Source: Streptomyces griseus (lineage in GTDB: Bacteria > Actinomycetota > Actinomycetes > Streptomycetales > Streptomycetaceae). From it: a DNA stretch of 64,000 nt. The notes under the pieces were generated by a model that saw nothing but the letters and a program-made list of their open reading frames with translations, ran no database searches and was not told where the DNA came from. The position numbers were made by a program, and so were the translations under genes. Positions 2,554-19,238 of this stretch are shown one piece after another; the stretch's first letter is position 1; the number at the start of each line of letters is the position of its first letter. The stretch is from contig NZ_UAVD01000004.1 of NCBI RefSeq assembly GCF_900460065.1, forward strand, positions 1 to 64,000, given 5' to 3'.

Positions 2554-2862
2554 CTACCGGGCGCGCACACCGCCCCAGTTGTCCGCGCTCCTGCGCTCGT
2601 CGCGGGAGTGGTTGTCGTGGATGCTCTGGACGAGCTCGCCGCTGTCGCCGAGGAGGAGGGCCATGTTCTTGGTGGCCTGGTCCCACTCGGCCTGCACGCC
2701 GCGGTACATCTGCTGGTCGTCACCCTCCCAGGAGGTCACGAGCGGCTTGAGCTCGTCCTCCAGGTTGTTGAGGGTGGTGATGATCTGCTGGGTCTGCTGC
2801 TTCAGTTCCTCGATCGCGTTGCGGACCGTGGAGTACTGGACATCGATGATGCCGTCGGCCAT
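2554..2862 (-). CDS. WXG100 family protein (EsxB/CFP-10-like)
   Basis: The 102-residue helical protein has W45-E-G47 (SWEGDD) in the middle, which is the helix-turn-helix hairpin signature of WXG100 proteins. The size is exactly family-typical. The N-terminal helix is rich in Gln, Ile and Leu, and the tail is polar and Arg-rich (ADNWGGVRAR). The start at ATG 2862 has a GAGAGGAG-type RBS. There is no signal peptide, as expected for a substrate exported by EccC as a folded helical dimer. No Tyr-x3-Asp/Glu export motif of the mycobacterial kind is evident in the tail. It lies 91 nt downstream of the second WXG100 gene, and the two probably form a heterodimer. Confidence 0.9.
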   Translation of the reverse strand: MADGIIDVQYSTVRNAIEELKQQTQQIITTLNNLEDELKPLVTSWEGDDQQMYRGVQAEWDQATKNMALLLGDSGELVQSIHDNHSRDERRSADNWGGVRAR

Positions 2863-3752: not shown

Positions 3753-5297
3753 TCATGGCCGGGAGTCGACCGTCCCGGTACCGCCGGGAGCGCCGCACCT
3801 CGGGGCGGTGACCCTGGGCTCCGCGGCGCCGGAGGCGGCGGCCGGATCGAGGTCCGCGCCGGTCGGCAGCGCGGCGAGCAGCGGTGCGGGGACCGAGCCG
3901 ATGTCCCCCTCCCCGTACCCGAGCGCCGTCAGGGCGTCCTTCGCCGGGACCCGGTACTTCACACCGTTGTCCGCGACGAGGTAGGTGGTTCCCGCGTGTG
4001 CGGCGCCGCTCGCGTGCAGGGCCCGGACCAGGGCCCCGCGCCCGGGGCGTACCACGGTGGCGTCCGTCCTGGCGCAGGCGGCGACCAGCGACCGGTCGGC
4101 GCCCGGCGCCGCCGCCGCGGGGGCGAGCCCGGCCAGCGGGACCAGCACCGACCTGATCCGGGCGCCGCCGTCGCCGCCGTCCACCTGGGCGCAGAGCGCG
4201 GTGCCGCGCGGCGCGGACTGCGGAAGGGGCGGCGTACGGGGCAGCTCGGAGGCCGCCGGTCCGGCGGGGGCGGTCTCCTCGGCCCGGTGGGTGCGCAGCG
4301 CGTCCGCCCCGACCGCCCGGGCCTCGGGCGAGCGCCCCCGGTAGGCGTCCTTCTGGGTGGCCGGGTCACCGAGCACCAGGGCGGCCTCCAGGCGGGACAG
4401 CGGCACCAGACCGTCCTTCCGCAGCAGGTGGTACGTGCTGCCGCCGCCGACCACGCCGACCTCGAATAGCTGGCCGATCCGGCTCGGTTCGCCGCCGATC
4501 TCCGGCCCCTCGCCCCCGCGGCCGGGCACCTCCGGCGGCTTGAGGGCCGGGCCGGGGGCGAGGGCGTCGAGGAAGGCCGCCGAGACCGGCATCGCCCGCT
4601 CGGAGCCGTAACCGAGGGCGTTACGGGCGTCGGATTCGGGATCCAGCGGGAGGCGGCTGCCCCGCCAGACCAGGTACTCGGTGCGGTCCGGGCCCCGGAC
4701 GAGGACCCCGCGGTCGGCGCCGACCCCCTGGGACTCCAGCGGCGCCCCGGCCACCACCGTGGTGGCCCCGGGCCGGTCCACACCCGCGGCGGCGACGGCG
4801 CCGGAGGTGCTGGGCAGGGCGCCGTCCGGTCCGGTGACGCACAGGTGCCAGGCCCCGGCGTCGAGCCCGCCCGGGCCCGGCAGGGTGTCCGGGGCGCCGG
4901 GTATGCCGGCCGGGGAGCCCACGGGGACGTCCCGCAGGGAGGCGGTGGAGACGTCCACCGCCTTGAGGTCGGAGCCGCCGATCAGCCGCGCCGAGGCGTA
5001 GTTGCGCACCGGGTGCAGCACGCCGTCGGTGCCGGTCCACAGGTAGCGGGCGCCGGTCTCGCGGTTGACCACCAGGTGCTCGCCCTTGCGCCAGGTGTCG
5101 TTCCCGCCGGGCCGCAGCAACCCGTAGACGGTGGCGCCCGCTCCGATCAGGACGGTGACCAGCAGGCCGAAGACGACGCCCCGGGTGGTGCGGCCCAGCG
5201 GGCTCTCCGGAGCGTCCGGGTCGGCCGTCAGCAGGCCGGAACTGAGCCTGCCCATCATGAAACCGTGGGCCTGGACCTGATCGCGCTTGGACTGCAC
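3753..5297 (-). CDS. eccB: type VII secretion protein EccB
   Basis: The 514-residue membrane-anchored core subunit of the ESX machine starts at GTG 5297 with a GAGGAGAGG RBS 2-8 nt upstream. The N-terminus has the EccB hallmark SKRDQVQAHGFMMGRL, in which a short cytoplasmic region precedes a single transmembrane helix at about residues 39-60. The rest is an extracytoplasmic domain with repeated motifs of the kind Y-L-V-x-x-G-x-x-x (GTEYLV, TTYLVADNGVKY), matching the R-repeat fold of EccB. Cysteines near residues 150, 360, 390 and 500 could form disulfides. It lies 44 nt downstream of eccD in the same operon. The family is known to contact EccC and line the periplasmic vestibule. Confidence 0.93.
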   Translation of the reverse strand: MQSKRDQVQAHGFMMGRLSSGLLTADPDAPESPLGRTTRGVVFGLLVTVLIGAGATVYGLLRPGGNDTWRKGEHLVVNRETGARYLWTGTDGVLHPVRNYASARLIGGSDLKAVDVSTASLRDVPVGSPAGIPGAPDTLPGPGGLDAGAWHLCVTGPDGALPSTSGAVAAAGVDRPGATTVVAGAPLESQGVGADRGVLVRGPDRTEYLVWRGSRLPLDPESDARNALGYGSERAMPVSAAFLDALAPGPALKPPEVPGRGGEGPEIGGEPSRIGQLFEVGVVGGGSTYHLLRKDGLVPLSRLEAALVLGDPATQKDAYRGRSPEARAVGADALRTHRAEETAPAGPAASELPRTPPLPQSAPRGTALCAQVDGGDGGARIRSVLVPLAGLAPAAAAPGADRSLVAACARTDATVVRPGRGALVRALHASGAAHAGTTYLVADNGVKYRVPAKDALTALGYGEGDIGSVPAPLLAALPTGADLDPAAASGAAEPRVTAPRCGAPGGTGTVDSRP

Positions 5298-5341: not shown

Positions 5342-6748
5342 TCAGCCGAACAGGCCGCGCAGCCAGCCGAAGAGGCCCGCCACCCACAGGGTGAGCGGGA
5401 GCAGCGCGACGGCCAGGCCGGTGTGCGCCAACTCCGCCGCCCGGCCCCAGTACGGCAGGACCCGTCGGCCGGGCACGATCCAGGAAGCGGTCACCAGGGC
5501 GGCCGCCGCCGCGAGCAGCACCCCGAAGACCACCACGCGGCCGTCGGCGTCGCTGTCCACCGCCCAGGCCCGGGCGAGCAGCAGCAGCCCCCAGATGCCG
5601 GGCGCCGCCAGCGTGAGGCGCTGGCCGATGTGGACCAGGCCCCGGGAGTGGAGGAGGAGCAGCAGGGTCAGTGCGAGCGCGGTGAGCGTCTCGGGCAGGT
5701 CCGGGGTGTGGGCGAGGACCACCAGGGCGGCGGCGGCGATGACGCCGGTGGCGGCGAAGAGTGCGGTGACCCAGCGCCCGGCGAGTTCGGTGCGCTCGGC
5801 GACCTCGTCGCCCGCGTACGGGTCGATGCCTTCCTGGAGCTGCCCGGCGGAGGACGGCAGCGCGGGCATCCGCATTCCGGCCAGTTTGAAGGCGAAGGGG
5901 GCCACCGCCCCGGCGGCGAGCGCGACGGCCGTCGCCACCAGCGCCACCGCGGCCGCCGCGTCCAGGCCGGTGTAGCCCATCAGCGCCCCGGAGACCGCGG
6001 CGGCCGCGGCGACCACGGCGGTGGCCAGCAGGGCGGGGGCGCCGACCGCGGTGGCGGCGAGCGCGAGGACCGCGCCGCCCGCCGCCGCGGCGCCGGCCGC
6101 GAGCAGCCGCGCCCCGGCGACCCGCGTCGCGTCGGGGCCGGTGAGGTCGCCGCCCGGCAGCACCCAGCCGACCAGGGCGAAGCACGGGGCGACCAGCAGG
6201 GCGAGCGCGGTGGCGGAGAGCCGGTCGCCGACCGCCCGGCTCGCGGAGCCGGCGCCGGCGAGGAGGAGCAGTCCGGCCACTGCGGCGAGGGCCGCCCGGG
6301 TGGTGGCGGAACCGCCCACTCCGGGCTGGAAGACCAGCAGGAGGGCGGCCCCCACGGCCGCCACGGCGGTGCCCACCAGCAGGCCCCGGGCCGCCCCGGG
6401 GTGCCAGGTGTGCAGCTTGCGGCCCACCGTCTCGGCCATTCCGTCGACGAGATCGTCGAGGCGGGCCTCGGGGAGCGCCTCGGTGTGCGGGCGGAGATGG
6501 AGCACGGTTCCGTCGGTGAGTCCGGCGCCGGCCAGGGTGGTCTCCTCGTCGAGCGGGGCGTCGCCGAGCCGCTGGAGCACCCAGCCGGCGTGGTCGAGCC
6601 CGGCCTCCTCGGCCTCCTCACCGACGTACCGCAGGAGGGTGGGGAGCAGATCGGCGACCGGTACGTCGGCGGGCACGGCCAGATCGATGGTGACGCTCGG
6701 CGCACGTACGGTCAGGCGGCACGATTCGGCCACCGCACTGTCGGTCAT
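5342..6748 (-). CDS. eccD: type VII secretion integral membrane protein EccD
   Basis: The 468-residue protein starts MTDSAVAESCRLTV at ATG 6748, with GAGAG about 9 nt upstream; an in-frame extension exists but is not bacterial-like. Residues about 8-90 form the ubiquitin-like (YukD) domain typical of EccD (VTIDLAVPADVPVADLLPTL). From about residue 130 to the end there are roughly eleven hydrophobic helices rich in Ala, Leu and Val, the EccD membrane barrel that forms the ESX pore vestibule. It is the first gene of the leftward transcript and is divergent from eccC across 401 nt, so the core components are probably coordinately regulated from that gap. Confidence 0.94.
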   Translation of the reverse strand: MTDSAVAESCRLTVRAPSVTIDLAVPADVPVADLLPTLLRYVGEEAEEAGLDHAGWVLQRLGDAPLDEETTLAGAGLTDGTVLHLRPHTEALPEARLDDLVDGMAETVGRKLHTWHPGAARGLLVGTAVAAVGAALLLVFQPGVGGSATTRAALAAVAGLLLLAGAGSASRAVGDRLSATALALLVAPCFALVGWVLPGGDLTGPDATRVAGARLLAAGAAAAGGAVLALAATAVGAPALLATAVVAAAAAVSGALMGYTGLDAAAAVALVATAVALAAGAVAPFAFKLAGMRMPALPSSAGQLQEGIDPYAGDEVAERTELAGRWVTALFAATGVIAAAALVVLAHTPDLPETLTALALTLLLLLHSRGLVHIGQRLTLAAPGIWGLLLLARAWAVDSDADGRVVVFGVLLAAAAALVTASWIVPGRRVLPYWGRAAELAHTGLAVALLPLTLWVAGLFGWLRGLFG

Positions 6749-7149
6749 CAGCAGAACTCTCGTCTTCCGTGCAGGCTTTGACAGAGGACTTCCCCGCGAG
6801 AGGGAATGTGCGAACAGTACGGAAAGTCCGCGTGGCTGTGAACCGGGGGGCCGGGCAGGGAATTTGTGCCCGTACACCGGGCGACCGCCCCTCCCGCGTG
6901 GACAGGCCGCGTTCCGTGAATGCAGACTACTGCCTGCGGCCACCGGTCGCGCCGCGGACCGGACTCCGAATCCGGTAGGTGGTCGACCATCACGGAAGTC
7001 GGCCGTTCCGCGCCGTCCCGCTCGAAACATTCACCCGGCGTTCATCGGGGCGCGTTCCGCCCGGAAAATCCGCCTGGTGCGGTCTTTCTCCCGTCGGGTA
7101 CGCCGGTATTCGGCGGGCCGGAAAGTCAGTGAACCGGAGGTTCTGTTCC
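6749..7149. promoter_or_regulatory. divergent promoter region of eccD and eccC
   Basis: This 401-nt gap separates two outward-facing T7SS genes and must hold promoters for both. No convincing gene is present. GGAGG at 7136-7140 is the RBS of eccC. A TTGACA-like hexamer occurs on the + strand at about 6777-6782, but no good -10 partner is found, so exact promoters are not assigned. Confidence 0.5.
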
Positions 7150-10100
7150 TTGAGTGTCGTGCTGTTTCGCCGCCCGGCCCGCAGGCGCGGGCCGGAGATG
7201 CCCGACGGGCAATTGACCCTCCAGGAGCCGCCCGTCCTCGCCGAGACGGTGCCCGACACCTCGGCGGTGTGGACCTATCTGCCGATGGCTCTGATGTCGG
7301 TGTCGATGATGCTGATGTTCCTGCGCCCCGGCGGCGGGAACGGCGTCTTCATGTATCTGGCGATGGGTGTCATGGCGCTCTCGGCCGGCGCCATGCTGCT
7401 GGGCCAGCTGATGCGCCGCTCCAGCGAGCGCAAACAGCGGCTGAAGGGCGAACGCCGTGACTACCTGCGCTATCTGGCGCAGACCCGCAAGCGGGTGCGG
7501 GCCACCATCGCGGAGCAGCAGCGGGCGCTCGCCTGGCGGCACCCGGAACCGGCCTCGCTGCGCTCGCTGGCCCGCACCTCCCGGCTGTGGGAGCGCCGCC
7601 CGGCGGACGAGGACTTCGGCGAGGTCCGGATCGCGGTCGGTGAACAGCAGTTGGCTCTGACCCTGAACCCCGTCTCCACCCGCCCGGTGGAGGACCTCGA
7701 ACCCCTCTGCGCGCACGCCCTGCGCCGCTTCATCCGCGCCTACTCCACCGTCCCGGAACAGCCCCTGGGCCTCTACCTGCGCTCCTCGGCCCGGATCCTG
7801 CTGCGTCCGGAGGAGGCCGCGGCCGAGGGGGCCGCCGGCGGGCAGGCGGCCGATCCGGGCGGGGGCGACGACGGCGACGCCGTACGTTCCCTGGTCCGTG
7901 CCGTACTGGGGCAGCTCGCGGTCTTCCACGCGCCCGAGGAACTCTGGCTCGCCCTGTGCGTCGGTGACGAACGGCGCCCCGACTGGGAGTGGGTCAAGTG
8001 GCTGCCGCACGTGCTGGATCCGCATGAGGAGGACGGCGCGGGACAGGCCCGCCGGATCACCGCCGACCTCAGCGAGCTGGACGACCTGCTCGGCGCCGAG
8101 TTCGCCGAGCGCCCCGGCTTCGACCCGGACGCCCGCCCCGGCCGTGACGAGCCGTACACGGTCGTCCTGCTGGACGGCGTCACCGTCCCGGAGGGCCACC
8201 GCTGGGAGGGGCACGGCTACCGCAACGCCCTGATCCTCGACGTCTCCGGGGCGCTGCGCTGGCGGCCCGGCCGCAACACCCTGCGGCTGACCGTCGGGCC
8301 CGGCCGGGTGAGCCTGGTGCGCACCGACCGCAGCCGCAAGGAGCGGTCGGTGCCGCTGGGCGTTCCCGACCGGCTCGGCCCGTTCGGGGCGGAGTCGCTG
8401 GCCCGGCTCCTCACCCCGCGCCGGATGAGCCTCGGCGCCGACGTCGCGCAGCCGCTGGACACCGACGTCGAGCTGACCACCCTGCTCGGCATACCGGACC
8501 TGCACCGGCACGAACCGCGGACCCTGTTCGCCAAGCACACGGGCTCCGGCCGGCTGCGGGTGCCGGTCGCGGTCGGCGTGGACGGCCGCCCGGTCGAGCT
8601 CGACATCAAGGAGTCCGCGCAGGGCGGCATGGGCCCGCACGGCATGCTCATCGGCGCCACCGGCTCCGGCAAGAGCGAACTGCTGCGCACCCTCGTCCTC
8701 GGCCTCGCCCTGACCAACTCCTCCGAGACGCTCAACTTCGTGCTGGTCGACTTCAAGGGCGGCGCCACCTTCCTCGGTCTGGAGGAACTCCCGCACACCT
8801 CCGCCGTCATCACCAACCTCGCCGACGAGGTCGCCCTGGTGGAGCGCATGCAGGACGCCCTGCACGGCGAGCTGATCCGCCGTCAGGAGCTGCTCCGCTC
8901 GGCGGGGAACTACACCTCGGCCCTGGAGTACGAGCGGGCCCGGGCCGCCGGGGCGGAGCTGGCCCCGCTGCCCAGCCTGTTCGTGGTGGTCGACGAGTTC
9001 AGCGAACTGCTTTCCACGCACCGGGAGTTCATGGAGCTGTTCGTGATGATCGGCCGTCTCGGCCGCTCGCTGGGCGTGCACCTGCTGCTCGCCTCGCAGC
9101 GCCTGGACGAGGGGCGCATGCACCAGTTGGAGAGCCATCTCTCGTACCGCATCGGGCTGCGCACCTTCTCCGCGATGGAGAGCCGCGGCGTGCTCGGCGT
9201 CCCGGACGCCTACGAGCTGCCCGCCGCGCCGGGAAGCGGCTACCTGAAGTCGGGGGTGGAGGCCCTGACCCGGTTCCGTGCCGCGTACTCCTCGGGGACG
9301 TACCGGCGTCGGACGGGCGCGGTGGTACAGGCCAGGGTCGCGAGCCAGGTGGTGCCGTGGACGAGCGGCTGGGTGGTGCCCCGCACCCTGGAGACCCCGC
9401 CGGAGCCGGAGACCGGGGCCGAGGAGGGGGCCGAGGACGAGGAGGCGCTGCTCGACGTGGCGCTCGACCGGCTGCGCGGCTCCGGGCCGGCCGCCCACCA
9501 GGTGTGGCTGCCGCCGTTGGACGAGCCGTCCCCGCTGGACACCCTGCTGCCCGGCATCGCACCGGTCGAGGGCCGCGGCCTGACCGCCGCCGGATGGCCG
9601 GGCGCCGGCCGGCTGCGGGTCCCGGTCGGCCTCGTGGACAAACCCTTCGAGCAGCGCCGTGACCCGCTGGTCGTGGACCTTTCCGGGGCGGGCGGCCACG
9701 TCGCCGTGGCGGGCGGTTCGCAGAGCGGCAAGTCGACGCTTGCCCGCACCCTCATCGCCGCCCTCGCGCTCACCCACACCCCGGCCGAAGTCCAGTTCTA
9801 CTGCCTGGACTTCGGCGGTGGCGGGCTCTCCCAGCTCGCCGCGCTCCCCCACGTCGGCGGGGTCGCGGCACGGCTCGATCCGGAGCGGGTGCACCGGGCG
9901 GTGGCCGAGGTGATGGCGCTCCTGGCCCGGCGCGAGCAGTTCTTCGTGGACCACACCCTGGACTCCATGCAGTCCTACCGGCGTCGCCGGGCCGCCGGGG
10001 AGTTCCCCGACGAACCGTTCGGTGACGTCTTCATGGTGGTCGACGGCTGGTCCACGGTCCGCCAGGACTACGACGACCTGATCCCGAAGTTCAACGAACT

Positions 10101-11184
10101 CGCCGCCCGCGGTCTCAACTACGGGATCCACCTGATCATCACCACCACCCGCTGGGTGGAACTGTCCGCACAGGTGCGCGACCAGGCCGGCACCCGTCTG
10201 GAGCTGCGGATGGGCGACCCCATGGACTCCGAGATCGACACCCGCAAGGCCCGTTCGGTACCGCGCTCCGGCGGCCGGGGCATCACCGCCGACAGCAAGA
10301 TGCACTTCCTCGCGGGCCTTCCCCGCCTGGACGGCAGCGGCTCCCTGGAGGACCTCGGCGACGGCGTGGCCCATCTGGTCGCGGAGATCGCGCGGCACTG
10401 GCCGGGCCCCGAAGCCCCCCGGGTCCGGATGCTGCCGCACCGGCTCCCGCTCGCCGACCTCCCCGCGCCCGAGGCCACGGAGGGCGGCGGCATGCGCCTC
10501 GCGCTCGGCCTCGACCAGGACGCCCTCGAACCGGTCTGGCACGACTTCAGCCGCACCCCGCACCTGATCGCGGTCGGCGACACCGAGAGCGGCAAGACCA
10601 ACCTGTTGCGCCTGGTCACCCGGGGCATCACCACCCGGTACGCTCCCGAGGAGGCGAAGATCATCGCGGTGGACTACCGCCGCACCCTGGTCGACGCGAT
10701 CCCCGAGGAGTACCGCATCGGGCACGTGATCTCCCTCGACAACCTCAACGAGACCATCGAGGGCGCGGCCCGCGCGATGAAGACCCGGGTGCCGGGCGCG
10801 GACATCGCGCCGGCCCGGATGCGCCGGTGCGACTGGTGGACGGGACCGCGCCTGTTCATCCTGGTCGACGACTACGACATGGTCTCCTCGAACTCCTTCC
10901 AGAGCCCCTTCGAGCCGATCTTCGAGCATCTGACGCTCGGCTACGAGATGGGGCTGCACCTGGTCGTCGCCCGCAGCGCCATGGGGGCGGGGCGCGGTCT
11001 CAGCGACGGGCTCGTCCGCCGCCTCGACGAGGCCAACAACCCGGCGGTGCTGCTCTCCTGCCCGCCCACGGAGGGCCGCCTCTTCGGCAACGCGAAGCCG
11101 CTCAACCTTCCGCCGGGCCGGGCCCTGCACATCGCCCGACGCAAGCCGCGGCTGATGCAGACGGCGCTGGTGGAGGAGGGCTGA
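7150..11184 (+). CDS. eccC: type VII secretion ATPase EccC (fused EccCa/EccCb)
   Basis: This 1344-residue coupling ATPase of the ESX system recognises WXG100 substrates and energises export. The start is TTG 7150, chosen because CGGAGG ends 9 nt upstream and the N-terminus then reads SVVLFRRPARRRGPEMP, typical of the family. Two membrane helices lie at about residues 38-58 and 67-87. Three FtsK/SpoIIIE ATPase domains follow, with Walker A motifs GATGSGKSE (about 502), GGSQSGKST (about 855) and GDTESGKTN (about 1143). Domain 1 has VVVDEFSELL, so the catalytic acidic pair is kept; domain 2 has VVDGW and domain 3 VDDYD. All three domains are on one chain, as in single-polypeptide EccC. It converges on the mycosin operon, with a hairpin at 11246-11269 between them. 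Confidence 0.95.
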   Translation: MSVVLFRRPARRRGPEMPDGQLTLQEPPVLAETVPDTSAVWTYLPMALMSVSMMLMFLRPGGGNGVFMYLAMGVMALSAGAMLLGQLMRRSSERKQRLKGERRDYLRYLAQTRKRVRATIAEQQRALAWRHPEPASLRSLARTSRLWERRPADEDFGEVRIAVGEQQLALTLNPVSTRPVEDLEPLCAHALRRFIRAYSTVPEQPLGLYLRSSARILLRPEEAAAEGAAGGQAADPGGGDDGDAVRSLVRAVLGQLAVFHAPEELWLALCVGDERRPDWEWVKWLPHVLDPHEEDGAGQARRITADLSELDDLLGAEFAERPGFDPDARPGRDEPYTVVLLDGVTVPEGHRWEGHGYRNALILDVSGALRWRPGRNTLRLTVGPGRVSLVRTDRSRKERSVPLGVPDRLGPFGAESLARLLTPRRMSLGADVAQPLDTDVELTTLLGIPDLHRHEPRTLFAKHTGSGRLRVPVAVGVDGRPVELDIKESAQGGMGPHGMLIGATGSGKSELLRTLVLGLALTNSSETLNFVLVDFKGGATFLGLEELPHTSAVITNLADEVALVERMQDALHGELIRRQELLRSAGNYTSALEYERARAAGAELAPLPSLFVVVDEFSELLSTHREFMELFVMIGRLGRSLGVHLLLASQRLDEGRMHQLESHLSYRIGLRTFSAMESRGVLGVPDAYELPAAPGSGYLKSGVEALTRFRAAYSSGTYRRRTGAVVQARVASQVVPWTSGWVVPRTLETPPEPETGAEEGAEDEEALLDVALDRLRGSGPAAHQVWLPPLDEPSPLDTLLPGIAPVEGRGLTAAGWPGAGRLRVPVGLVDKPFEQRRDPLVVDLSGAGGHVAVAGGSQSGKSTLARTLIAALALTHTPAEVQFYCLDFGGGGLSQLAALPHVGGVAARLDPERVHRAVAEVMALLARREQFFVDHTLDSMQSYRRRRAAGEFPDEPFGDVFMVVDGWSTVRQDYDDLIPKFNELAARGLNYGIHLIITTTRWVELSAQVRDQAGTRLELRMGDPMDSEIDTRKARSVPRSGGRGITADSKMHFLAGLPRLDGSGSLEDLGDGVAHLVAEIARHWPGPEAPRVRMLPHRLPLADLPAPEATEGGGMRLALGLDQDALEPVWHDFSRTPHLIAVGDTESGKTNLLRLVTRGITTRYAPEEAKIIAVDYRRTLVDAIPEEYRIGHVISLDNLNETIEGAARAMKTRVPGADIAPARMRRCDWWTGPRLFILVDDYDMVSSNSFQSPFEPIFEHLTLGYEMGLHLVVARSAMGAGRGLSDGLVRRLDEANNPAVLLSCPPTEGRLFGNAKPLNLPPGRALHIARRKPRLMQTALVEEG

Positions 11185-11275: not shown

Positions 11276-12520
11276 TCAGCGCCTGCCCGGGGGGCCCGCG
11301 TCCGCCGGGCGCCAGCCCCGGGCACGGGCCCGGGAGAAACCGAAACCGGCCCAGAGGACGGCGAGGACGCCCGCCGATCCGAGGAGGACGACAAGCGTGG
11401 CCCGGCCGGTGGCGCGGTCGGTGCCGGAGGTGTCGCGCGCGGCCACGGGCGCGGCGGCACGCTGCGCGGCCGGAGGCCCCGCGTCGCCGAGGACCGTGGT
11501 GACGGCGGCGTAGGCGTCCAGCTGGGGGATGTCGGCCGGGTAGGCGGTGGCGGTCAGCCGGCGGGTCACCGCCTCGGCGGAGTCGTCGGGGTGCGTGGCG
11601 CGGACGACCGCGGCGGCCCCGGCGGCGTACGCGGTGGCCACCGCGACGCCCGCCCCCAGGTAGTGCCCGGTCCCGCGCGGCCCGCCGGAGACCACTCCGG
11701 CGCCGGGAGCGGCCAGGTCGACGGTGCCGGTGGGCAGGGAGCCGTCCGGGCGGGTTCCGGCGGGCAGCATGTCGGCGACCGAGACGACGCCCGGTTCACC
11801 GGCCGGCCAGTAGGTGCGGGAGGGGATCTCGTCGGCGGAGCCCCGCGACGGCGGGTCGGGGGTGGCCGCGGCGACGACCACGGCGCCCGCCCGGCCGGCC
11901 TCGGCGACCGCCCGGGTCAGCGCCTTGTCCCGGCGCGGCAGGGCGACGGCGACCGCGATCACGTCGGCCCGGGCCTCGGCCGCCTCGCGCACCGCCGCCG
12001 TGACCAGGGCCGGGTCCGGCTGCCCGCGCCGGTCCGTGCCGCGCAGGGCCAGGATCTTCGCGCGGGGGGCGACGCCGACCAGCTTCGGGGTGCCGCCCCC
12101 CGTCCCGGCGATCAGCCCGGCCAGGAACGTGCCGTGTCCGACGCAGTCGTCGGCGGCGGCGCCCTCGGCGGTGACCCGGCCGTCGAGCCCGGCGGCCTCG
12201 GGGTCGACCCCGGTGGAGATCAGCGCGACGGTGACGCCCGCCCCGGTGGAGTGCCCGTGCAGCCGGTCCAGGTCGAGGCGCTGACGCGACCAGTCCTGCT
12301 TCTTCGCCTTCTCCCCGGAGGCGGGGGTGCAGGCCGCCTCGTCGGCCCGCGGGTCGAGCGCGGCGGGCATCCCGGGCAGTTCCTGGCCCTTCTTCCCGTC
12401 GGCCGCGGGAAGGGCTGTCGGGGTACGGGCGGGGGACGTCGCCGGGGCGGGGGCGGCCACGGGCAGCAGCAGGGCGACCGCGAGCCCCGCACCGTACAGC
12501 AGGCGGACGGGCGGCCTCAT
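11276..12520 (-). CDS. mycosin-like subtilase (MycP family) with a degenerate active site
   Basis: The 414-residue protein has an N-terminal signal peptide (LLYGAGLAVALLLPVAAPAPA), an S8 peptidase fold over about residues 80-350, and a C-terminal transmembrane helix (TLVVLLGSAGVLAVLW) followed by a short basic tail. This is the mycosin layout. The active site is changed: the position of the catalytic Asp in D-T-G reads ISTG (Ser), the His motif is intact (VGHGTFLAG), the oxyanion Asn region reads VVAAATPDP without Asn, and the Ser motif G-T-S-x-A-A-P reads GVAVATA, with Ala at the nucleophile position. It is therefore probably proteolytically inactive. ATG 12520 overlaps the upstream stop by 4 nt, so translation is coupled to the beta-helix/AAA gene. 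Mycosins are known to stabilise the ESX complex independently of proteolysis, so a structural role is likely. Confidence 0.88.
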   Translation of the reverse strand: MRPPVRLLYGAGLAVALLLPVAAPAPATSPARTPTALPAADGKKGQELPGMPAALDPRADEAACTPASGEKAKKQDWSRQRLDLDRLHGHSTGAGVTVALISTGVDPEAAGLDGRVTAEGAAADDCVGHGTFLAGLIAGTGGGTPKLVGVAPRAKILALRGTDRRGQPDPALVTAAVREAAEARADVIAVAVALPRRDKALTRAVAEAGRAGAVVVAAATPDPPSRGSADEIPSRTYWPAGEPGVVSVADMLPAGTRPDGSLPTGTVDLAAPGAGVVSGGPRGTGHYLGAGVAVATAYAAGAAAVVRATHPDDSAEAVTRRLTATAYPADIPQLDAYAAVTTVLGDAGPPAAQRAAAPVAARDTSGTDRATGRATLVVLLGSAGVLAVLWAGFGFSRARARGWRPADAGPPGRR

Positions 12521-15500
12521 CGGGGCGCCGCCTCGGATGCCCCGGCCGCCACGTCCGCCGGGAGGAGGACGCGCAGGTCCTCCAGGGTGGGTGCGGCCAG
12601 CGAACTGAGCCGCCCCGCCTGGCGGGTGACCATCGACTCGACGACCTGGCGGGCCAGCCGGGCGTTGCCGAAGGAGCGGTCGCGGGGCACCGCGTCGAAG
12701 TGCTCCTTGAGCAGGGGCCCGGTGCCGGGCCCGCACTCGTACCCCATGGCCGCGGCCTGGGCGCGCACGATGGTGACCAGTTCCTCGGAGGAGTAGTCGG
12801 CGAAGGAGATCCGGCGCGGGAAGCGGGAGGAGAGCCCCGGGTTGGAGGCGAGGAAGCGCTCCATCTCGTCGGTGTAGCCCGCGACGATGACGACGACCTC
12901 GTCGCGGTGGTCCTCCATCAGTTTCAGCAGGGTGTCCACCGCCTCCTGGCCGAAGTCGGCGCCGCCGCCGCGCGGGGTGAGGGTGTACGCCTCGTCGATG
13001 AACAGCACACCGCCGCGGGCCTTCTCGAAGACCTCGCGGGTCAGCTGGGCGGTGTGCCCGATGTAGCGGCCGACGAGATCGGCGCGGGCCGCCTCGACCA
13101 ACTGGCCGCGCGCCAGCACGCCGAGCTGGGTCAGCACCTCCCCGTAGAGGCGGGCCACGGTGGTCTTGCCGGTGCCGGGCGGACCGGTGAAGACCAGGTG
13201 GTTGCTGAGGGTGGGGACGGGCAGCCCGGCGGCGGCCCGGTGCCGGGCGGTGGTGATGAGGTTGACCAGATCGGCGACCTCGCGCTTCACTCCGGCCAGG
13301 CCGATCATGTCGCCGAGGCGGGTGAGCGGGTCGTCGGCCGGTGCGGCGGTCCCGGCGGCCGACGCGGCGGTGGCGGAGACGTCGTCGGGCAGCAGGAGCC
13401 GCAGGTCGCGCTCACCGACCTGCGCCTGCGCGGAGAGCCGGACCGCCTGCCGGTCCACCATCTCCTCGAACACGCCGCGTGCGGCCCGGCCGTTGCCGAA
13501 CCCGGCGTCCCGGTCCATCGCGCCGAAGTGGGCCGCGAGGGCCTGCGCGGTGCCCTCACCCAGCTCGTACTGGTGCTGGGCGCACATACTCTCCATGATC
13601 GCGACCAGGTCGCTCACCGAGTAGTTCTCGAACTCGACGGTCCGTGAGAAGCGGGACGCCAGGCCCGGGTTGGAGCCGAGGAAGGAGTCCATCTCGCGGG
13701 AGTAGCCGGCCGCGACCACCACCACGTCGTCGCGGTGGTCCTCCATGAGCTTCAGCAGGGTGTCCACCGCCTCCCGGCCGAAGTCGGCGCCGCCGTTGCC
13801 GCTGTCCGAGGTGAGGGTGTACGCCTCGTCGATGAACAGCACTCCTCCCAGCGCTCGTTGGAAGGTCTCGGAGGTCTTGATGGCGGTGCCGCCGACGACC
13901 TGGGCCACCAGGTCGGCGCGCGAGACCTCGACCAGGTGTCCGCTGCGCAGCGAACCCAGCTCGGCGAGGATCGCCCCGTAGAGGCGGGCCACGGTGGTCT
14001 TGCCGGTGCCGGGCGGACCGGCGAACACCAGGTGTCTGCTCATGGGCGGCGCGGGCATGCCGAGTTGTTCGCGGCGCTGGGCGAGCCGGGTGAGGTTGAC
14101 CAGGGTGCCCACCTGCTGCTTGACGTTCTCCAGGCCGATCAGCGCGTTGAGGGCGCCGAGCGGGCCGTCCGCACGGTCCGGCGGGGGCGCGTCGGCCGCG
14201 CCGGAGCCCGCCGGGTCGGTGTTCTCGGCGCTGCCGCTGCCCCACGCGTCCCGCTTGCCGTTGCCGACGCTGTTCAGCCCCTCCACGGCGAGCCGTTCGC
14301 CGGGGGCGGTCTGCACCAAGCCGCCGCCCTCGTTCTCCCGGGCGGCGCAGTTGACGAGCGAGACGGGGGCGGTGGACTCGACCCGGAAGCCGTCCTGGGC
14401 GCCGCTGTTGGCCTCGCAGCCGCTGAGCGAGGCGAGCGCGCCCTCGCGCAGCAGGAAGCCGTGGCCCTTGGGGGCGTGCACCGAGGTGCGGTTGGCGGTC
14501 AGTTCGCCCCCGGCGTCGACGACCACGCCTTCCTCGCCGCTCGTCTCGACACGGAAGTCGCGGACGGTGACGTTGCCGCCGTCCTCGACGACCAGGCCGC
14601 TGGTGGCCGTGTCGGAGACCCCGCCACCGGCCAGGTACAGGGTGGAGCCGGAGGCCACCCGTACACCGGCGCCCTTCGGCCGGACGATCTCGCAGTCCTC
14701 GACACGGCCCCGGGCGTCCCGGGTGGCCGCGATGCCGTCGCCGGCGGGCTCGACCAGGCGGGCCCGGCGCAGCAGCGGATTGGCGCCGCCCAGCAGGGCG
14801 ACGGCGGGCGAGGAGCCGATCACCTCCAGGCGGTCCAGCTCGGGCGCCGCGTCCTCCTCCAGGAGCAGGCCGGCCCCCTCGCAGTCGCGGACGGTCAGCC
14901 CGGTCAGCGCCGGGGAGGACGCCCCGGCGACGCGCAGCGCCGCGCCCTGTGCGCCGTCGACCCAGCAGTCCTCGAAGGTGCCGCGCGCCCGGTCGGTGAC
15001 AACGACGCCGTGGCCGCGCACGCGTGAGACACGGCAGCGGCGCACCACGGGGTCGGTGCCCTGCGCCAGGGCGATGCCGTTGCCGGAGGCGCCGGTGACG
15101 CGGACGTCCTCCAGCGTGGTGCGGCCCGTGCTGCTCAGGTGCACGCCGGTGCTGGTGTCGTGCACCACGGTCCGGACGACCGACACGGCGGAGTCGCCCT
15201 CCAGGGCGATGGAGGGCTTGTCGGTGGAGGAGACGTCGCAGTCCTCGACGGTCCCGCGGGCCTCGCCGTTGGCGAGCAGTCCGTTGCCTCGGGCACCCCG
15301 TACCGTGCAGTCGCGGATGCGTGCCTCGCCCTGCTCGGCGAGGACGAAGCCGCTGGTCCCGAGGTGTTCGAGCGTGCAGGACTCGACGGTGGTGGGGGTG
15401 GTGGAGGTGACCACGATCCCCGCGCCCTGCGGGTTGCTCACCCGGCAGTCCCGCAGCGCGAGGGAGCCGGTCCCGCCGGCGAGCATCGCCGTCCAGGCGG

Positions 15501-15825
15501 CCCCGACGATCTCGCACCCGTCGAACGCGGCCTGTCCGCGCCGCACGTCGACGGCGGGCAGTTCGGGGTCGCCGCCGCGCAGGGTCAGCTCGGAGAGCAT
15601 GACCGCGTCGGCGCGCAGCGCGATGACGCTGCCGGTGCGCGGCCGGATCTCCACCGTGCCCCGCCCGTCGGCGGCGGTGAGCGTGACCCGGGTGTGGATC
15701 ACCAGGTTCTCCGCGTACGTCCCGGGCCGGACGCTGATGAGCGCACCGGTACGAGCGGCGGCGAGCGCCTCGCCGATGGTGGAAAAGCGGTCCTCGGGGC
15801 CGACCGTCAGTACCTGGCGCGACAC
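12517..15825 (-). CDS. right-handed beta-helix protein fused to two CbxX/EccA-like AAA+ modules
   Basis: The 1102-residue protein starts at GTG 15825 behind a strong AGGAGG site. Residues about 1-520 form a right-handed parallel beta-helix: many short units ending in patterns like V-x-D-C-x-V and G-x-G-V/I-x-V. After a linker rich in Asp, Pro and Gly come two AAA+ ATPase modules of the CbxX/EccA type. Each has GPPGTGKTTVARLYG (about residues 597 and 875), a Walker B LFIDEAYTL and a downstream NPGL(A/S)SRF segment. The two modules are clearly duplicates of one another. No signal peptide or membrane helix is seen, so the protein should be cytosolic. EccA proteins act as chaperones of ESX substrates, and by position this protein may do the same. 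The beta-helix would be the substrate-binding or scaffold part, which is an inference. Confidence 0.88.
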   Translation of the reverse strand: MSRQVLTVGPEDRFSTIGEALAAARTGALISVRPGTYAENLVIHTRVTLTAADGRGTVEIRPRTGSVIALRADAVMLSELTLRGGDPELPAVDVRRGQAAFDGCEIVGAAWTAMLAGGTGSLALRDCRVSNPQGAGIVVTSTTPTTVESCTLEHLGTSGFVLAEQGEARIRDCTVRGARGNGLLANGEARGTVEDCDVSSTDKPSIALEGDSAVSVVRTVVHDTSTGVHLSSTGRTTLEDVRVTGASGNGIALAQGTDPVVRRCRVSRVRGHGVVVTDRARGTFEDCWVDGAQGAALRVAGASSPALTGLTVRDCEGAGLLLEEDAAPELDRLEVIGSSPAVALLGGANPLLRRARLVEPAGDGIAATRDARGRVEDCEIVRPKGAGVRVASGSTLYLAGGGVSDTATSGLVVEDGGNVTVRDFRVETSGEEGVVVDAGGELTANRTSVHAPKGHGFLLREGALASLSGCEANSGAQDGFRVESTAPVSLVNCAARENEGGGLVQTAPGERLAVEGLNSVGNGKRDAWGSGSAENTDPAGSGAADAPPPDRADGPLGALNALIGLENVKQQVGTLVNLTRLAQRREQLGMPAPPMSRHLVFAGPPGTGKTTVARLYGAILAELGSLRSGHLVEVSRADLVAQVVGGTAIKTSETFQRALGGVLFIDEAYTLTSDSGNGGADFGREAVDTLLKLMEDHRDDVVVVAAGYSREMDSFLGSNPGLASRFSRTVEFENYSVSDLVAIMESMCAQHQYELGEGTAQALAAHFGAMDRDAGFGNGRAARGVFEEMVDRQAVRLSAQAQVGERDLRLLLPDDVSATAASAAGTAAPADDPLTRLGDMIGLAGVKREVADLVNLITTARHRAAAGLPVPTLSNHLVFTGPPGTGKTTVARLYGEVLTQLGVLARGQLVEAARADLVGRYIGHTAQLTREVFEKARGGVLFIDEAYTLTPRGGGADFGQEAVDTLLKLMEDHRDEVVVIVAGYTDEMERFLASNPGLSSRFPRRISFADYSSEELVTIVRAQAAAMGYECGPGTGPLLKEHFDAVPRDRSFGNARLARQVVESMVTRQAGRLSSLAAPTLEDLRVLLPADVAAGASEAAPR

Positions 15826-15968: not shown

Positions 15969-17243
15969 TCAGACGCTCCACTTCTGGTTGTCGAGCCCCG
16001 TGCAGGTCCACAGGATGAGATAGGTCTCCGGGCCCCTGTTCCGGCTGTGGTTCGGGATGTCGACACACTTGCCGACGGCGGTGTTGACCAGGTCGTGAGC
16101 GCCGTTGAGGGCGAACTTCTGGGCGTCGGCCCCGTTGCACCAGGCGATCTGGATGCGCGCGCCGTCGTTGAAGTTCGCGTTGGCGACGTCCAGGCACTTG
16201 TCCCTGACCCGGATCGTGCCGTCGGAGGCGAAGCGCCACTTCTGGGCGTCCGCGCCGTTGCAGTCCCACATGAACAACGGCTGGCCGTCGTTGAAGTTGT
16301 GACCGGGCACGTCGATGCAGCGGCCGGAGAGGTGGCTGCGGAAGGAGACGGGCCCGCTGAGGGTCACGGCGGGCGCGGCCTCGGCGGGCCGCTTCTTCGC
16401 CCCGTCGGCCTTCTTCGGCCGCGCTTCGGGACTGTCGGCTTTCCCGGGCGGGTTCGCGGAGGCCTTCGCGGGGGTGTCGTCCGGCTGTGACGCGTCCCCG
16501 CCCGTTCCCGGGGCAGCGGCGGGAGCGGGGGCCTGCCGCACGGGCTCGGCGGGCTTCCGCGGCTTGCCCTCGTCGCCCGTGCGGTCACCCGGGGGGCTGG
16601 TCTCGGGAGCGGTGACGGCGAACTCGCCAGGAGCCTCCTGCCCGGTGCCGTCGAGCACGGTCCCGGCCGCCGCCGTGTTCGTCCGCCCGGGCCCGTCGTC
16701 GTCGTTCCCGGCCAGGACGAGGAAGGGCACGGACACGAGCAGCGCGCCCGCGACCGCCGCCCCGGCGAGCACCGCCGCGCCCGGCCGGCCCACGGGCCCG
16801 GTCCGCGGCTGCGGCCGGTCGATGGCGGTGGCGGTCATGGTCCGTACGAGGGCGGGGAGCCGGCTCTGCGCGGCGGCGGAGGCGCCGGGGTCGGGGGCGG
16901 ACGCCGAGTCGGCCCCGGCGGCTTCGGGCCGGGCCTCGGGGGCCGAGGTCTCCGGACGGGTGGCCGGGGTCTCCGGACGGGTGGCCGGGGGCTCGGTCGG
17001 GACCTCGGGGTCCTTCCGCTCTCCGGCCGTCTCGTGCTCCGCCGCCTTCGGAACGGGTTCCGCGGCCCCGCCGGGCACAGCGGCGGCCGCGACGGAGGCG
17101 CCGGGCTCGGCGGGGGAGGCGGAGCCGGCCGTTCCCGCGCTCGTGGCCGCCACCTCGCCCCCGGTGCCCTGGGTGCTCTCGCGGCCGGACTCCGTACGGG
17201 CATCCGGGGAGACGGGGTCCTGCTGGGACGAACGGTGCGTCAC
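15969..17243 (-). CDS. membrane-anchored protein with extracellular ricin-type (beta-trefoil) lectin domain
   Basis: The 424-residue protein starts at GTG 17243 with GGGAGG upstream and overlaps the preceding gene by 4 nt. A long Ala/Pro/Glu-rich cytoplasmic region (about 1-155) is followed by one transmembrane helix (AAVLAGAAVAGALLVSVPFL), a Pro/Lys-rich stalk, and a C-terminal ricin B beta-trefoil over about residues 295-424. The trefoil keeps the QKW/QKF signature in all three lobes (GADAQKWRF, GADAQKFAL, LDNQKWSV), and each lobe carries C-(I/L/V)-D-(V/I). The N-in/C-out topology suits binding cell-wall or foreign glycans at the surface. The 143-nt space to the beta-helix/AAA gene (15826-15968) shows only that gene's RBS. 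The anchor is homologous to that of the B-lectin gene at 18258. Confidence 0.88.
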   Translation of the reverse strand: MTHRSSQQDPVSPDARTESGRESTQGTGGEVAATSAGTAGSASPAEPGASVAAAAVPGGAAEPVPKAAEHETAGERKDPEVPTEPPATRPETPATRPETSAPEARPEAAGADSASAPDPGASAAAQSRLPALVRTMTATAIDRPQPRTGPVGRPGAAVLAGAAVAGALLVSVPFLVLAGNDDDGPGRTNTAAAGTVLDGTGQEAPGEFAVTAPETSPPGDRTGDEGKPRKPAEPVRQAPAPAAAPGTGGDASQPDDTPAKASANPPGKADSPEARPKKADGAKKRPAEAAPAVTLSGPVSFRSHLSGRCIDVPGHNFNDGQPLFMWDCNGADAQKWRFASDGTIRVRDKCLDVANANFNDGARIQIAWCNGADAQKFALNGAHDLVNTAVGKCVDIPNHSRNRGPETYLILWTCTGLDNQKWSV

Positions 17244-17971
17244 GGGGTGGTCCTCCCTGTGGTGTGGGGCCCGGGTTCGCTCGGGCCGGGGTCGCCCGTC
17301 CCGCTCACGGGTCCGAGAAGACGGTCGGCGGGGACGAGCAGCGGAGCCGCGGCCCCGGGGTTGACCATCAGCAGGGCGTCGACGGCCCGCGCGGACCTGG
17401 CCAACTCCCTGGCCGGAAAGCTGTCATGGTGAAGTGCCGAGGACATGAATGCGTGGGTGGGCGAGGTGAACAACAGCATCACCGGCGCCCCGTCCCGCCC
17501 GGCGGCCGAGAGCGGCGCGCCGTCCGGCCCCCGCACGACGGTGACCTCCGCGTCCGCGAGGGCCTCCAGCGCCGCTTCCGCCGATCCGTACCCGGTGGCG
17601 GCCCGCTGGGCCGCCGCGTCCACCGGATCGGTGGGCTCCGGCCACCCGAGAACCCGAGCCGAGGGCCGGTACGCCGGGTTGGCGCGGTACTCCCCGACGC
17701 ACCCGTCCTCGTCCGACCGCCACTCCCCCAGCACGGCCCACTCCGGCGGCGTCCGCTCCCCGGCCCATTCCGGGTCGACGATCCCGACCCAGTGCCCCGG
17801 AGCACGCCGGGCGGCGTCCTTCACGGCATCGGGCACCAGGGAGGCATCGACCGTCTCGGTGCCGCCGCCGACGTCGGGTGCCCCGGGGGCGTCGGGTGCT
17901 CCGGAGGCACCGGAAACGCCGGACGGAACGCCCTGCCCGCCCACTTGCCGATCTCCGGGACGTATCTCCAC
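17240..17971 (-). CDS. type VII secretion system-associated protein
   Basis: The 243-residue soluble protein starts at GTG 17971. The first 40 residues are a low-complexity Gly/Ala/Pro/Ser stretch and may be translated from a later start. The conserved part contains GHWVGIVDPEW, PPEWAVLGEWRSD and LGWPEPTDPVDAA, which I recognise from a family annotated in Streptomyces as type VII secretion system-associated. No signal peptide, membrane segment or catalytic motif is evident. It is the first gene of the leftward operon that continues with the ricin-lectin, beta-helix/AAA and mycosin-like genes, with a GTGA overlap to the next gene. Function is unknown. Co-transcription supports a cytosolic accessory role. 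Confidence 0.78.
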   Translation of the reverse strand: MEIRPGDRQVGGQGVPSGVSGASGAPDAPGAPDVGGGTETVDASLVPDAVKDAARRAPGHWVGIVDPEWAGERTPPEWAVLGEWRSDEDGCVGEYRANPAYRPSARVLGWPEPTDPVDAAAQRAATGYGSAEAALEALADAEVTVVRGPDGAPLSAAGRDGAPVMLLFTSPTHAFMSSALHHDSFPARELARSARAVDALLMVNPGAAAPLLVPADRLLGPVSGTGDPGPSEPGPHTTGRTTP

Positions 17972-18257
17972 CTGAACTCTTGGCTCCGTACGCGTTCGTG
18001 AGCGCCGAACGGCACACGCTCGCCGCCGACAGTGACCGGATCGGGGAGCCTTCAGGATGTCACAGGAGCACCGCCCACGGGGCTCCGAGCAGGGCCCGTA
18101 TCACCCTCCTCACGTGCCCGTTTGCTGCCCGAACGGAGAACTTTCCGGGACCAGTGAGGCGTGGGAGGACAAAGCACCGGAGGGAGTTCGGGACGGGACA
18201 CCGCCGCCGCCGTCGCGACGGGCTACGTTGGGCGCGCCACCGAGGAGGAGTCACCGC
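17972..18257. promoter_or_regulatory. divergent promoter region between the two lectin operons
   Basis: This 286-nt gap lies between outward-facing genes that encode related membrane lectins. It carries GAGGAGGAG at 18242-18250 as RBS for the rightward gene. No -10/-35 pair is assigned with confidence. Confidence 0.45.
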
Positions 18258-19238
18258 ATGTCCCCCGAGCACCCCGCCCCCGGCGCCGGCACCGCGGCGG
18301 CCACCGCCCGCCCGGAGGAGTCCGGAGCCCAGCCCCCGCCGTCCGCCGCACCGGGGCCACAGCCCCCTGCCCCGACCGCCGAGCCGGAGTCGGCGACAGC
18401 TCCGGACGGGGAGAGGGCCACCACCGCGGCCGAGTCCCGGGCCGCGGCCGAGCCGGCCGGGACACCGGAGGCTCCGGACGCCGGCGCGGAGAGCCGCGCA
18501 GTGGCAGCGGCCATCGGCACGGCGCCGGAGACCCGGACCATCACCGCCGCCGACAAGGGGCGCCCCCGCACACCGGTCCTGGCAGGGGCCGCGTTCGTCG
18601 GCGCCGCCCTGGTGGCGATACCCGTGCTGCTGATGGGCAGCGCGAACGACGAGGAGCCCCGTACCCCCGCGACGACGGCGGTCGCCGGGAGCGCCGACAC
18701 GGTCCTCAACCCCGAGTCGGCCCCGGCGGCCCTGGACGACTACGTGGCGGTGAAGCCCAGCCCGTCCCCGACGAAGCCGAAGAGGACCGCCCCGCCGAAG
18801 GCCGCGCCCGTCCCGCCGGCACCCGCAGCCCCCACCCCGGCGCCCCGGACGAGCGCCCCCGCCGAGAAGCCCAAGGCGTCACCGAAACCGAAGCCCAAGG
18901 CGGCGCCGAAGCCGGACTGGGGCACCCAGACGGTCTCCGCGACCAGTTCCATCGGGGTCGGCCAGTCCTGGGCCACCAACCGCATCCGCATGACGATGCA
19001 GCAGGACGGCAACCTCGTCGTCTACAACGAGCAGAACAAGCCGGTCTGGGCCGCCATGACCTTCGGCGAGAACCACCGGGCGATCTTCCAGCCCGACGGC
19101 AACCTGGTGGTCCACAACGGCGACGACCGGGCGATCTGGGCCTCCAAGACCCATGACTTCGGCGGCGCCCGGATGGTCCTGAGGCCCGACGGCAAGGTGG
19201 TGATCGTGCACAACGACAGGGTGGTCTGGTCGACCTGA
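18258..19238 (+). CDS. membrane-anchored protein with extracellular B-lectin (mannose-binding bulb-type) domain
   Basis: The 326-residue protein starts MSPEHPAPGAG at ATG 18258 behind GAGGAGGAG. An earlier in-frame ATG lacks an RBS. A Pro/Ala/Glu-rich cytoplasmic region of about 110 residues precedes a single transmembrane helix (PVLAGAAFVGAALVAIPVLL). A Pro/Lys-rich stalk (KPSPSPTKPKRTAPPK) leads to a C-terminal B-lectin of about 100 residues. The B-lectin mannose motif Q-x-D-x-N-x-V-x-Y is complete in MQQDGNLVVY, is nearly complete in FQPDGNLVVH and is degenerate in the third sheet. The anchor plus the following residues (DTVLNPESAP) match the ricin-lectin protein encoded divergently (GTVLDGTGQEAP), so the two are paralogues with swapped heads. 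Confidence 0.87.
   Translation: MSPEHPAPGAGTAAATARPEESGAQPPPSAAPGPQPPAPTAEPESATAPDGERATTAAESRAAAEPAGTPEAPDAGAESRAVAAAIGTAPETRTITAADKGRPRTPVLAGAAFVGAALVAIPVLLMGSANDEEPRTPATTAVAGSADTVLNPESAPAALDDYVAVKPSPSPTKPKRTAPPKAAPVPPAPAAPTPAPRTSAPAEKPKASPKPKPKAAPKPDWGTQTVSATSSIGVGQSWATNRIRMTMQQDGNLVVYNEQNKPVWAAMTFGENHRAIFQPDGNLVVHNGDDRAIWASKTHDFGGARMVLRPDGKVVIVHNDRVVWST

What the first reader, a model, noticed from the sequence alone, without database searches (positions are those of the whole stretch)
15969..19238. Two membrane lectins with the same anchor but different sugar-binding heads face each other at the T7SS locus
The ricin-type protein (minus) and the B-lectin protein (plus) share a Pro/Ala/Glu cytoplasmic region, a very similar transmembrane helix (VLAGAA-x-x-GA-LV-x-P) and matching post-membrane residues. 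Their C-terminal heads are unrelated lectins. This is domain swapping on a common anchor, arranged divergently. They may display or recognise glycans to direct T7SS toward neighbouring cells or its own wall.
Basis: partly seen in the sequence, partly recalled or inferred. Interest (0 to 1): 0.65.

Follow-up and report, generated by a model that had tools for sequence, protein, structure and literature searches.

The report
Swappable membrane lectins beside toxin-secretion machine
A Streptomyces protein-secretion gene cluster carries two membrane proteins built on the same anchor but ending in different sugar-binding heads, and the same anchor recurs in related bacteria with several other kinds of head, usually next to this type of secretion system or to a very large predicted toxin gene.

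Summary
A ricin-head protein (15969-17243, minus) and a B-lectin-head protein (18258-19238, plus) share a Pro/Ala-rich tail, one transmembrane helix and a post-membrane TVL...[FY] box; their heads are unrelated. The anchors are homologous (0 of 5000 TM-aware shuffles reach the score; hhalign 97.3%) and are each other's best non-self match in the genome. They flank a T7SS-associated gene (NF033532) in a second T7SS locus. An anchor profile finds 44 places in 24 of 101 Streptomyces genomes: 24 ricin, 16 B-lectin, 2 ChW, 2 golvesin-like heads. Of these, 30 lie within 10 kb of T7SS core genes, 9 beside or one gene from a giant ORF and/or NF033532, and 5 by neither. NF033532 overlaps the lectin start by 4 nt in 26 of 32 rows. 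Within 40 kb of an EccC: 18 of 22 anchored places against 2 of 121 unanchored ricin matches. Best reading: an envelope accessory of an accessory T7SS whose clusters often carry giant predicted toxins, a tethered glycan binder with exchangeable heads. Strong head conservation favours a conserved ligand, perhaps the producer's own wall. No binding or function was tested.

The parts
15969..17243 (-). Ricin-head membrane lectin, 424 aa (GTG start at 17243)
16779..17243 (-). N-terminal Pro/Ala-rich tail of the ricin protein (residues 1-155), predicted cytoplasmic
   Evidence: composition (P 0.15, A 0.21, E 0.09); topology inferred from the positive-inside count over relatives
16707..16778 (-). Transmembrane helix of the shared anchor, ricin protein (residues 156-179)
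16584..16706 (-). Post-membrane TVL...GEF box of the shared anchor, ricin protein (residues 180-220)
   Evidence: alignment; alone not significant for this pair
15972..16346 (-). Ricin-type beta-trefoil head (residues 300-424)
   Evidence: PF00652 95 bits
17240..17971 (-). NF033532 'type VII secretion system-associated protein'; its stop overlaps the lectin start by 4 nt (GTGA)
18258..19238 (+). B-lectin-head membrane lectin, 326 aa
18258..18575 (+). N-terminal Pro/Ala-rich tail of the B-lectin protein (residues 1-106), predicted cytoplasmic
   Evidence: P 0.19, A 0.28, E 0.10
18576..18638 (+). Transmembrane helix of the shared anchor, B-lectin protein (residues 107-127)
18639..18773 (+). Post-membrane TVL...DDYVA box of the shared anchor, B-lectin protein
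18909..19235 (+). B-lectin (MMBL) head; 1 of 3 QxDxNxVxY sites canonical (QQDGNLVVY)
12517..15825 (-). EccA-type AAA ATPase with N-terminal beta-helix, 143 bp downstream of the ricin lectin gene
11276..12736 (-). Mycosin-like subtilase (MycP), below the TIGR03921 cut-off
6979..11184 (+). EccC (both halves over NCBIfam cut-offs)
5342..7030 (-). EccD
3753..5297 (-). EccB (start approximate)
   Evidence: PF05108 E 1.4e-100
2554..2862 (-). WXG100 protein
1900..2376 (-). NF033533 'type VII secretion system-associated protein'

Best explanation
These are two members of a modular family of single-pass membrane lectins that work as envelope accessories of an accessory T7SS (second ESX system), one that in several relatives sits in a cluster with a giant predicted polymorphic toxin. 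The disordered tail and helix are predicted to hold the protein N-in/C-out in the membrane, and a low-complexity linker (about 45-80 residues beyond the box) carries the head into the wall. The head binds a wall or surface glycan. I think the most likely role is docking: tying the secretion apparatus, or the exported giant protein, to the producer's own wall polymers. The head was exchanged in evolution (ricin, B-lectin, ChW, golvesin-like) as the ligand differed between lineages or sites. Shown by computation: shared anchor, unrelated heads, recurrence, T7SS and giant-ORF linkage, conserved 4-nt overlap with NF033532. Inferred: topology, co-translation, glycan binding, docking. Not shown: the ligand, cis against trans, and that the giant protein is the T7SS substrate.
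For: Anchor homology. Family with four head types on one anchor: 44 places in 24 of 101 genomes (heads). Linkage: 30 of 44 within 10 kb of EccA/MycP/EccC, 9 of 44 beside or one gene from a giant ORF and/or NF033532. Control: within 40 kb of an EccC over cut-off, 18 of 22 anchored against 2 of 121 unanchored ricin matches. Operon evidence: NTGA overlap of NF033532 and the lectin start in frame in 26 of 32 rows, 25 after removing one duplicate genome; it persists with a golvesin-like head (L156) and after a 7010-codon ORF (L074/G045). Topology: N side more positive in 61 of 64 distinct relatives. Heads conserved (median identity ricin 85%, B-lectin 91%) more than NF033532 (71%) or MycP (78%) over 21 loci, as expected for a conserved ligand.
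Against: Five of 44 anchored proteins have no T7SS match and no giant frame in the fetched stretch (L108, L109, L143, L144, L149), so the anchor is not used only with this system; only the window's proteins were used as queries, so diverged T7SS genes could be missed. Of the weaker relatives mapped, L112, L169, L170 and L172 also showed no T7SS match. The window B-lectin has degenerate sugar sites (1 of 3 canonical), and 7 of 29 anchored B-lectin rows have none, one of them truncated, so sugar binding may be weak or changed. Either lectin can be absent: G052 and G100 lack the anchored B-lectin, and G032 (a draft of 560 contigs) shows no anchored ricin protein. In the window's own genome the giant frame is on another contig (C21), so its link to the window is inferred from relatives. 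The places are not independent: 12 of the 22 are six orthologous pairs. Cis docking has no direct evidence.
Confidence: 0.45

Rival explanations
1. Trans adhesins: the heads bind glycans of neighbouring cells, so that the giant T7SS-linked toxin is delivered on contact. Head exchange is target-range diversification, in the manner of umbrella-particle lectins.
For: Some giant ORFs beside these lectins carry toxin-type domains: TcdA/TcdB-type glycosyltransferase in L113 and EndoU in L114, both beside weak-anchor relatives, and a Scabin-like C-terminus in G005. [quoted passage not shown] Umbrella lectins bind variable surface polymers (PMC13274773, abstract and one section).
Against: Within the clade the heads are better conserved than MycP or NF033532 of the same loci, unlike hypervariable target recognition. 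The proteins are predicted to be membrane-tethered, not secreted.
Confidence: 0.22
2. Self-protection or immunity: the NF033532 plus lectin cassette guards the producer against its own giant toxin (NF033532 inside, lectin masking a surface receptor).
For: In some genomes the cassette lies directly after a giant ORF (G045, G075), and NF033532 occurs in tandem copies in G045 and G029, as immunity genes often do (recalled).
Against: In at least 12 genomes the cassette lies beside EccA rather than next to a giant ORF. NF033532 is one conserved family although the toxin domains found differ. It is named T7SS-associated, not immunity.
Confidence: 0.12
3. Sensor: the lectin head senses wall or neighbour glycans and its long cytoplasmic tail signals to the T7SS through NF033532.
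For: A tail of 106-155 residues at the predicted inner face; conserved gene coupling to NF033532.
Against: The tail is low-complexity and no signalling domain was found in the proteins scanned.
Confidence: 0.08
4. Ordinary cell-surface lectins whose closeness to the T7SS is accidental hitch-hiking, with a common low-complexity membrane anchor.
For: Five of 44 have neither neighbour; L065 is a truncated B-lectin copy with no T7SS match in its 20-kb locus.
Against: 18 of 22 anchored against 2 of 121 unanchored near EccC; conserved 4-nt overlap; linkage also at divergent loci with EccC identity near 70%.
Confidence: 0.08

Closest known systems
Umbrella-toxin UmbA lectins of Streptomyces (PMC11062931, PMC13274773)
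   Same: A conserved base joined to exchangeable lectin heads, linked to a large polymorphic toxin, in the same genus.
   Different: UmbA uses a trypsin-like base in a secreted particle. Here the base is a predicted transmembrane anchor encoded in an accessory T7SS locus, no trypsin-like domain was found in either protein, and the heads are conserved within a clade. Not a member.
RicinB and bulb-lectin domains inside polymorphic toxins (PMC3482391)
   Same: The same lectin folds in toxin systems.
   Different: Here the lectin is a separate membrane protein, not part of the toxin chain.
Giant multi-toxin proteins of actinobacteria (PMC3482391)
   Same: Giant ORFs next to or in the same cluster as these lectins in relatives; one (G005) has a Scabin-like C-terminus and a weak LF-like match.
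   Different: They are the neighbours, not the lectins. The passages of that paper that I saw do not mention anchored lectins beside them.
Second ESX copies without eccE in Streptomyces (PMC8401907)
   Same: A second T7SS locus with EccB, EccC, EccD and no EccE found among the proteins scanned here.
   Different: No 'ricin' in that paper's text; accessory membrane lectins were not seen in the passages read.
MMBL/B_lectin and CBM13/ricin-B lectin families
   Same: Fold families of the heads.
   Different: Predicted membrane-anchored, and the window B-lectin has degenerate mannose motifs.

Membership tests
T7SS (ESX) locus | EccC ATPase over curated cut-off | tested here: met
   TIGR03924 907 bits, TIGR03925 825 bits
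T7SS (ESX) locus | EccB, EccD and WXG100 present | tested here: met
   PF05108 E 1.4e-100; TIGR03920 and PF19053; PF06013
T7SS (ESX) locus | Mycosin | tested here: inconclusive
   TIGR03921 163.7 bits against cut-off 278.75; subtilase domain present
T7SS (ESX) locus | EccE | tested here: inconclusive
   Not found among the window proteins scanned; the contig begins inside the locus
Ricin-B / CBM13 lectin | Beta-trefoil profile over cut-off | tested here: met
   PF00652 95 bits against 29
Ricin-B / CBM13 lectin | Sugar binding | not testable with these tools
   Needs a binding assay
B_lectin / MMBL | Profile over Pfam cut-off | tested here: not met
   30.2 against 32.4 bits; anchored relatives L110 and L152 reach 39.0 and 44.2 bits; phmmer matches to MMBL structures down to E 3.3e-19
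B_lectin / MMBL | QxDxNxVxY mannose sites | tested here: inconclusive
   1 of 3 canonical in the window protein; 3 of 3 in L110 and L152; the motif itself is recalled
Umbrella UmbA lectins | Trypsin-like N-terminal domain | tested here: not met
   No such domain in either protein
Shared anchor family (this work) | GRPxxP-LAGAA-TM-TVL profile | tested here: met
   E 2.0e-30 and 5.2e-28, but both window sequences are in the profile; independent pairwise evidence

The most novel reading that the evidence does not exclude
A previously undescribed family of T7SS accessory proteins: one membrane anchor, translationally coupled to NF033532, that presents interchangeable wall- or glycan-binding heads and positions or targets giant polymorphic toxins exported by accessory T7SSs. 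It would be a membrane-bound counterpart of the swappable lectins of umbrella particles.
Probability: 0.35. Interest if true: 0.78.

Novelty: new variant of a known kind. Interest (0 to 1): 0.6.

Why it matters
How T7SS substrates cross or leave the thick Gram-positive wall, and how actinobacterial giant toxins reach their targets, is to my knowledge largely open. A conserved, apparently operon-encoded membrane lectin with exchangeable heads gives a concrete, testable envelope component for both questions. It also links accessory Streptomyces T7SSs, giant polymorphic toxins and glycan recognition in one genetic neighbourhood.

Tried and rejected
Chance similarity of two Ala-rich helices: rejected by TM-aware shuffles and whole-genome reciprocal matches. 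I did not run hhalign against unrelated helices as a negative control. Post-membrane similarity taken from this pair alone: not significant (317 of 5000).

AlphaFold of the B-lectin head (single sequence) gave pLDDT 51.6 and of NF033532 (10 rows) 54.9; both are too poor to build on. Foldseek for NF033532 gave only marginal hits to TTHA0547 (E 3e-3), not used as evidence. My impression that NF033532 resembles SseB is recalled and untested.

Anchor search outside the genus: of 61 family genomes, 51 were from other genera; 4 of these 51 (4 genera) have weaker relatives (E 1e-11 to 1e-6), with ricin- or golvesin-like heads by eye. Of the five weak places whose neighbourhoods I mapped, two lie beside T7SS genes (L171, L173) and three showed no T7SS match (L169, L170, L172); L165 was not mapped. 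Of the three weak relatives, G019 and G023 lie beside ORFs of 2959 and 3049 aa and 27 and 37 kb from an EccC, and G012 by neither.

Papers: searches found no description of T7SS-linked membrane lectins in the listings of the library held; subscription papers are missing. PMC12691689 was looked at by passages and gave nothing on lectins.
Full report
What is there. The window is the start of contig C40 of a Streptomyces genome (genus from relatives). It holds a T7SS locus: WXG100, EccB, EccD, EccC, a mycosin-like protease, an EccA-type ATPase with a beta-helix, and two NCBIfam 'T7SS-associated' proteins, NF033532 and NF033533. It is a second system: the genome has another EccC over cut-off on contig C57. 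Second ESX copies lacking eccE are reported in Streptomyces (PMC8401907, passages).

The pair. The ricin-head gene (15969-17243, minus) and the B-lectin-head gene (18258-19238, plus) are divergent, with NF033532 (17240-17971, minus) between them. NF033532 overlaps the ricin start by 4 nt (GTGA), and EccA follows 143 bp downstream. The anchors are homologous: score 106 against 45.6 +/- 9.3 in 5000 TM-aware shuffles with none reaching it, hhalign 97.3%, reciprocal best non-self match in the genome. The heads are unrelated by sequence. The post-membrane box alone is weak for this pair (317 of 5000 shuffles reach it).

A family. A 12-row anchor profile (A1; rows were chosen because they show the motif, and both window sequences are in it) was searched in 101 Streptomyces genomes (the window's own plus 100 drawn evenly): 44 places in 24 genomes at E <= 1e-8. 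I classified the heads by Pfam for 19 of the 44 and by the printed sequence for the other 25, most of them orthologues of the window pair: 24 ricin-type, 16 B-lectin, 2 ChW, 2 golvesin-like. Some Pfam matches are below the cut-off: the window B-lectin and L107 (30.2 and 30.5 against 32.4) and the L154 ricin head (28.3 against 29). The golvesin label rests on one Pfam match below cut-off (L112, E 1.6e-4) in a weaker relative outside the 44; the other golvesin-like heads gave no Pfam match (L113, L114, L144, L156) and were grouped by eye. Three weaker relatives (E 1.3e-8 to 2.2e-5; G012, G019, G023) also have golvesin-like heads.

Context. By mapping the window's proteins onto fetched stretches (tblastn), 30 of 44 places lie within 10 kb of EccA, MycP or EccC. 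Nine more lie beside or one gene from a giant ORF and/or NF033532 (G045 C9, G053 two, G014 C297, G068 ricin, G091, G069, G079, G075); G069 has NF033532 but no long frame was seen in its 20-kb stretch. Five have neither (L108 and L143 ChW, L109 B-lectin, L144 golvesin-like, L149 ricin; no frame over 1100 codons in these stretches). The divergent pair around NF033532 is present in 12 of 101 genomes. Among the 14 named loci, 11 show the pair with EccA/EccC, two are cut by contig ends (L055, L060), and one (L065) is a truncated B-lectin with no T7SS match. G052 and G100 have only the ricin member at the T7SS; G032 shows only the B-lectin member.

Control. In the first 61 genomes, 15 of 22 anchored places (E below 1e-15) lie within 12 kb and 18 of 22 within 40 kb of an EccC over cut-off. 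For the unanchored ricin matches the numbers are 2 of 121 at 12 and 40 kb, and 3 of 121 at 100 kb. One search lists 132 ricin matches; the 11 with the anchor were left out of the 121. The anchored places are not independent (12 of 22 are six orthologous pairs). The two unanchored exceptions, L073 and L079, are themselves ricin proteins with a hydrophobic helix unlike the anchor.

Operon evidence. In one search, 32 rows had an NF033532 match. In 26 (25 after removing the L062/L066 duplicate; the window's own overlap read from its coordinates) its stop overlaps the start of an anchored lectin by 4 nt (ATGA/GTGA) in frame. Of the other six, two are contig ends (L055, L060), one has no lectin downstream (L107), two have a roughly 1000-1160-aa gene in between (L154, L155), and one (L067) the script did not resolve. 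The overlap holds with ricin heads and with a golvesin-like head (L156).

Giant ORFs. In relatives the same clusters contain open frames of 9460 (G005), 8826 (G052), 7010 (G045), 7021 (G091) and at least 10,434 codons (G068). In G068 a B-lectin sits by EccA, and 64 kb away a ricin lectin follows a frame of at least 3133 codons; the stretch between was fetched only in part. Pfam finds TcdA/TcdB-type glycosyltransferase and EndoU domains in two giants beside weak-anchor relatives, and a Scabin-like C-terminus plus a weak LF-like match in the G005 giant. Two other giants gave no Pfam match (L072; a 3133-aa part in L151). Giant multi-toxin actinobacterial proteins were described in 2012 (PMC3482391, passages). 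The window's genome has a 5668-codon frame related to the G005 giant on contig C21; that it adjoins C40 is inference.

Mechanism. Predicted N-in/C-out topology (N side more positive in 61 of 64 distinct relatives), a low-complexity linker and carbohydrate-type heads point to a tethered glycan binder in the wall zone of an accessory T7SS. Over 21 orthologous loci the heads (median 85% and 91% identity to the window) are better conserved than MycP (78%), NF033532 (71%) or the anchors (70% and 76%), but below EccC and EccA (93% and 94%) (best tblastn segments). This argues for a conserved ligand and, to me, for docking to the producer's own wall over hypervariable target recognition. The sugar sites argue for caution: the canonical mannose motif is present once in the window B-lectin, 0 times in 7 of 29 anchored B-lectin rows (one truncated), and 3 times in L110 and L152.

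Known or new. Swappable lectins with a polymorphic toxin are known from umbrella particles (PMC11062931 passages; PMC13274773 abstract and one section), but on a different, secreted base. I found no description of T7SS-linked membrane lectins with a shared anchor in the searches. I rate it a new variant of a known kind.

Noticed in passing
G005, G052, G045, G091, G068 (loci L118-L120, L123-L124, L126-L127 and L074, L153/L174, L167-L168): Open frames of about 7,000 to over 10,000 codons in accessory T7SS clusters, on the side of the NF033533 and g1 genes away from EccD.
   Followed up: partly
L108 9315-10766 and L143 9398-10771: Anchored ChW-head proteins in a shared non-T7SS neighbourhood of two genomes; the anchor family seems to have a second use without a T7SS.
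   Followed up: partly
L154 6169-9252, L155 5987-9469, L111 10751-13867: A roughly 1000-1160-aa protein lies between NF033532 or the giant ORF and the anchored lectin at these loci; the L154 copy has no Pfam match.
   Followed up: partly
window 12517-15825: EccA-type ATPase carries a large N-terminal right-handed beta-helix domain, unlike the usual EccA N-terminus (recalled).
   Followed up: no
window 19615-20944: Small protein with a signal-like start and C-terminal hydrophobic stretch followed by a sortase gene, next to the B-lectin; neither had a match at the relatives' loci mapped.
   Followed up: no
L118 8178-12772: In G005 a YbaB-like protein, a 122-aa protein and a WXG100_2-domain protein (1239 aa) precede the giant ORF.
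   Followed up: partly
L155 9536-10789: Anchored ricin-type head also matches the CDtoxinA/C lectin-like profile (PF03498, 33.6 bits).
   Followed up: no
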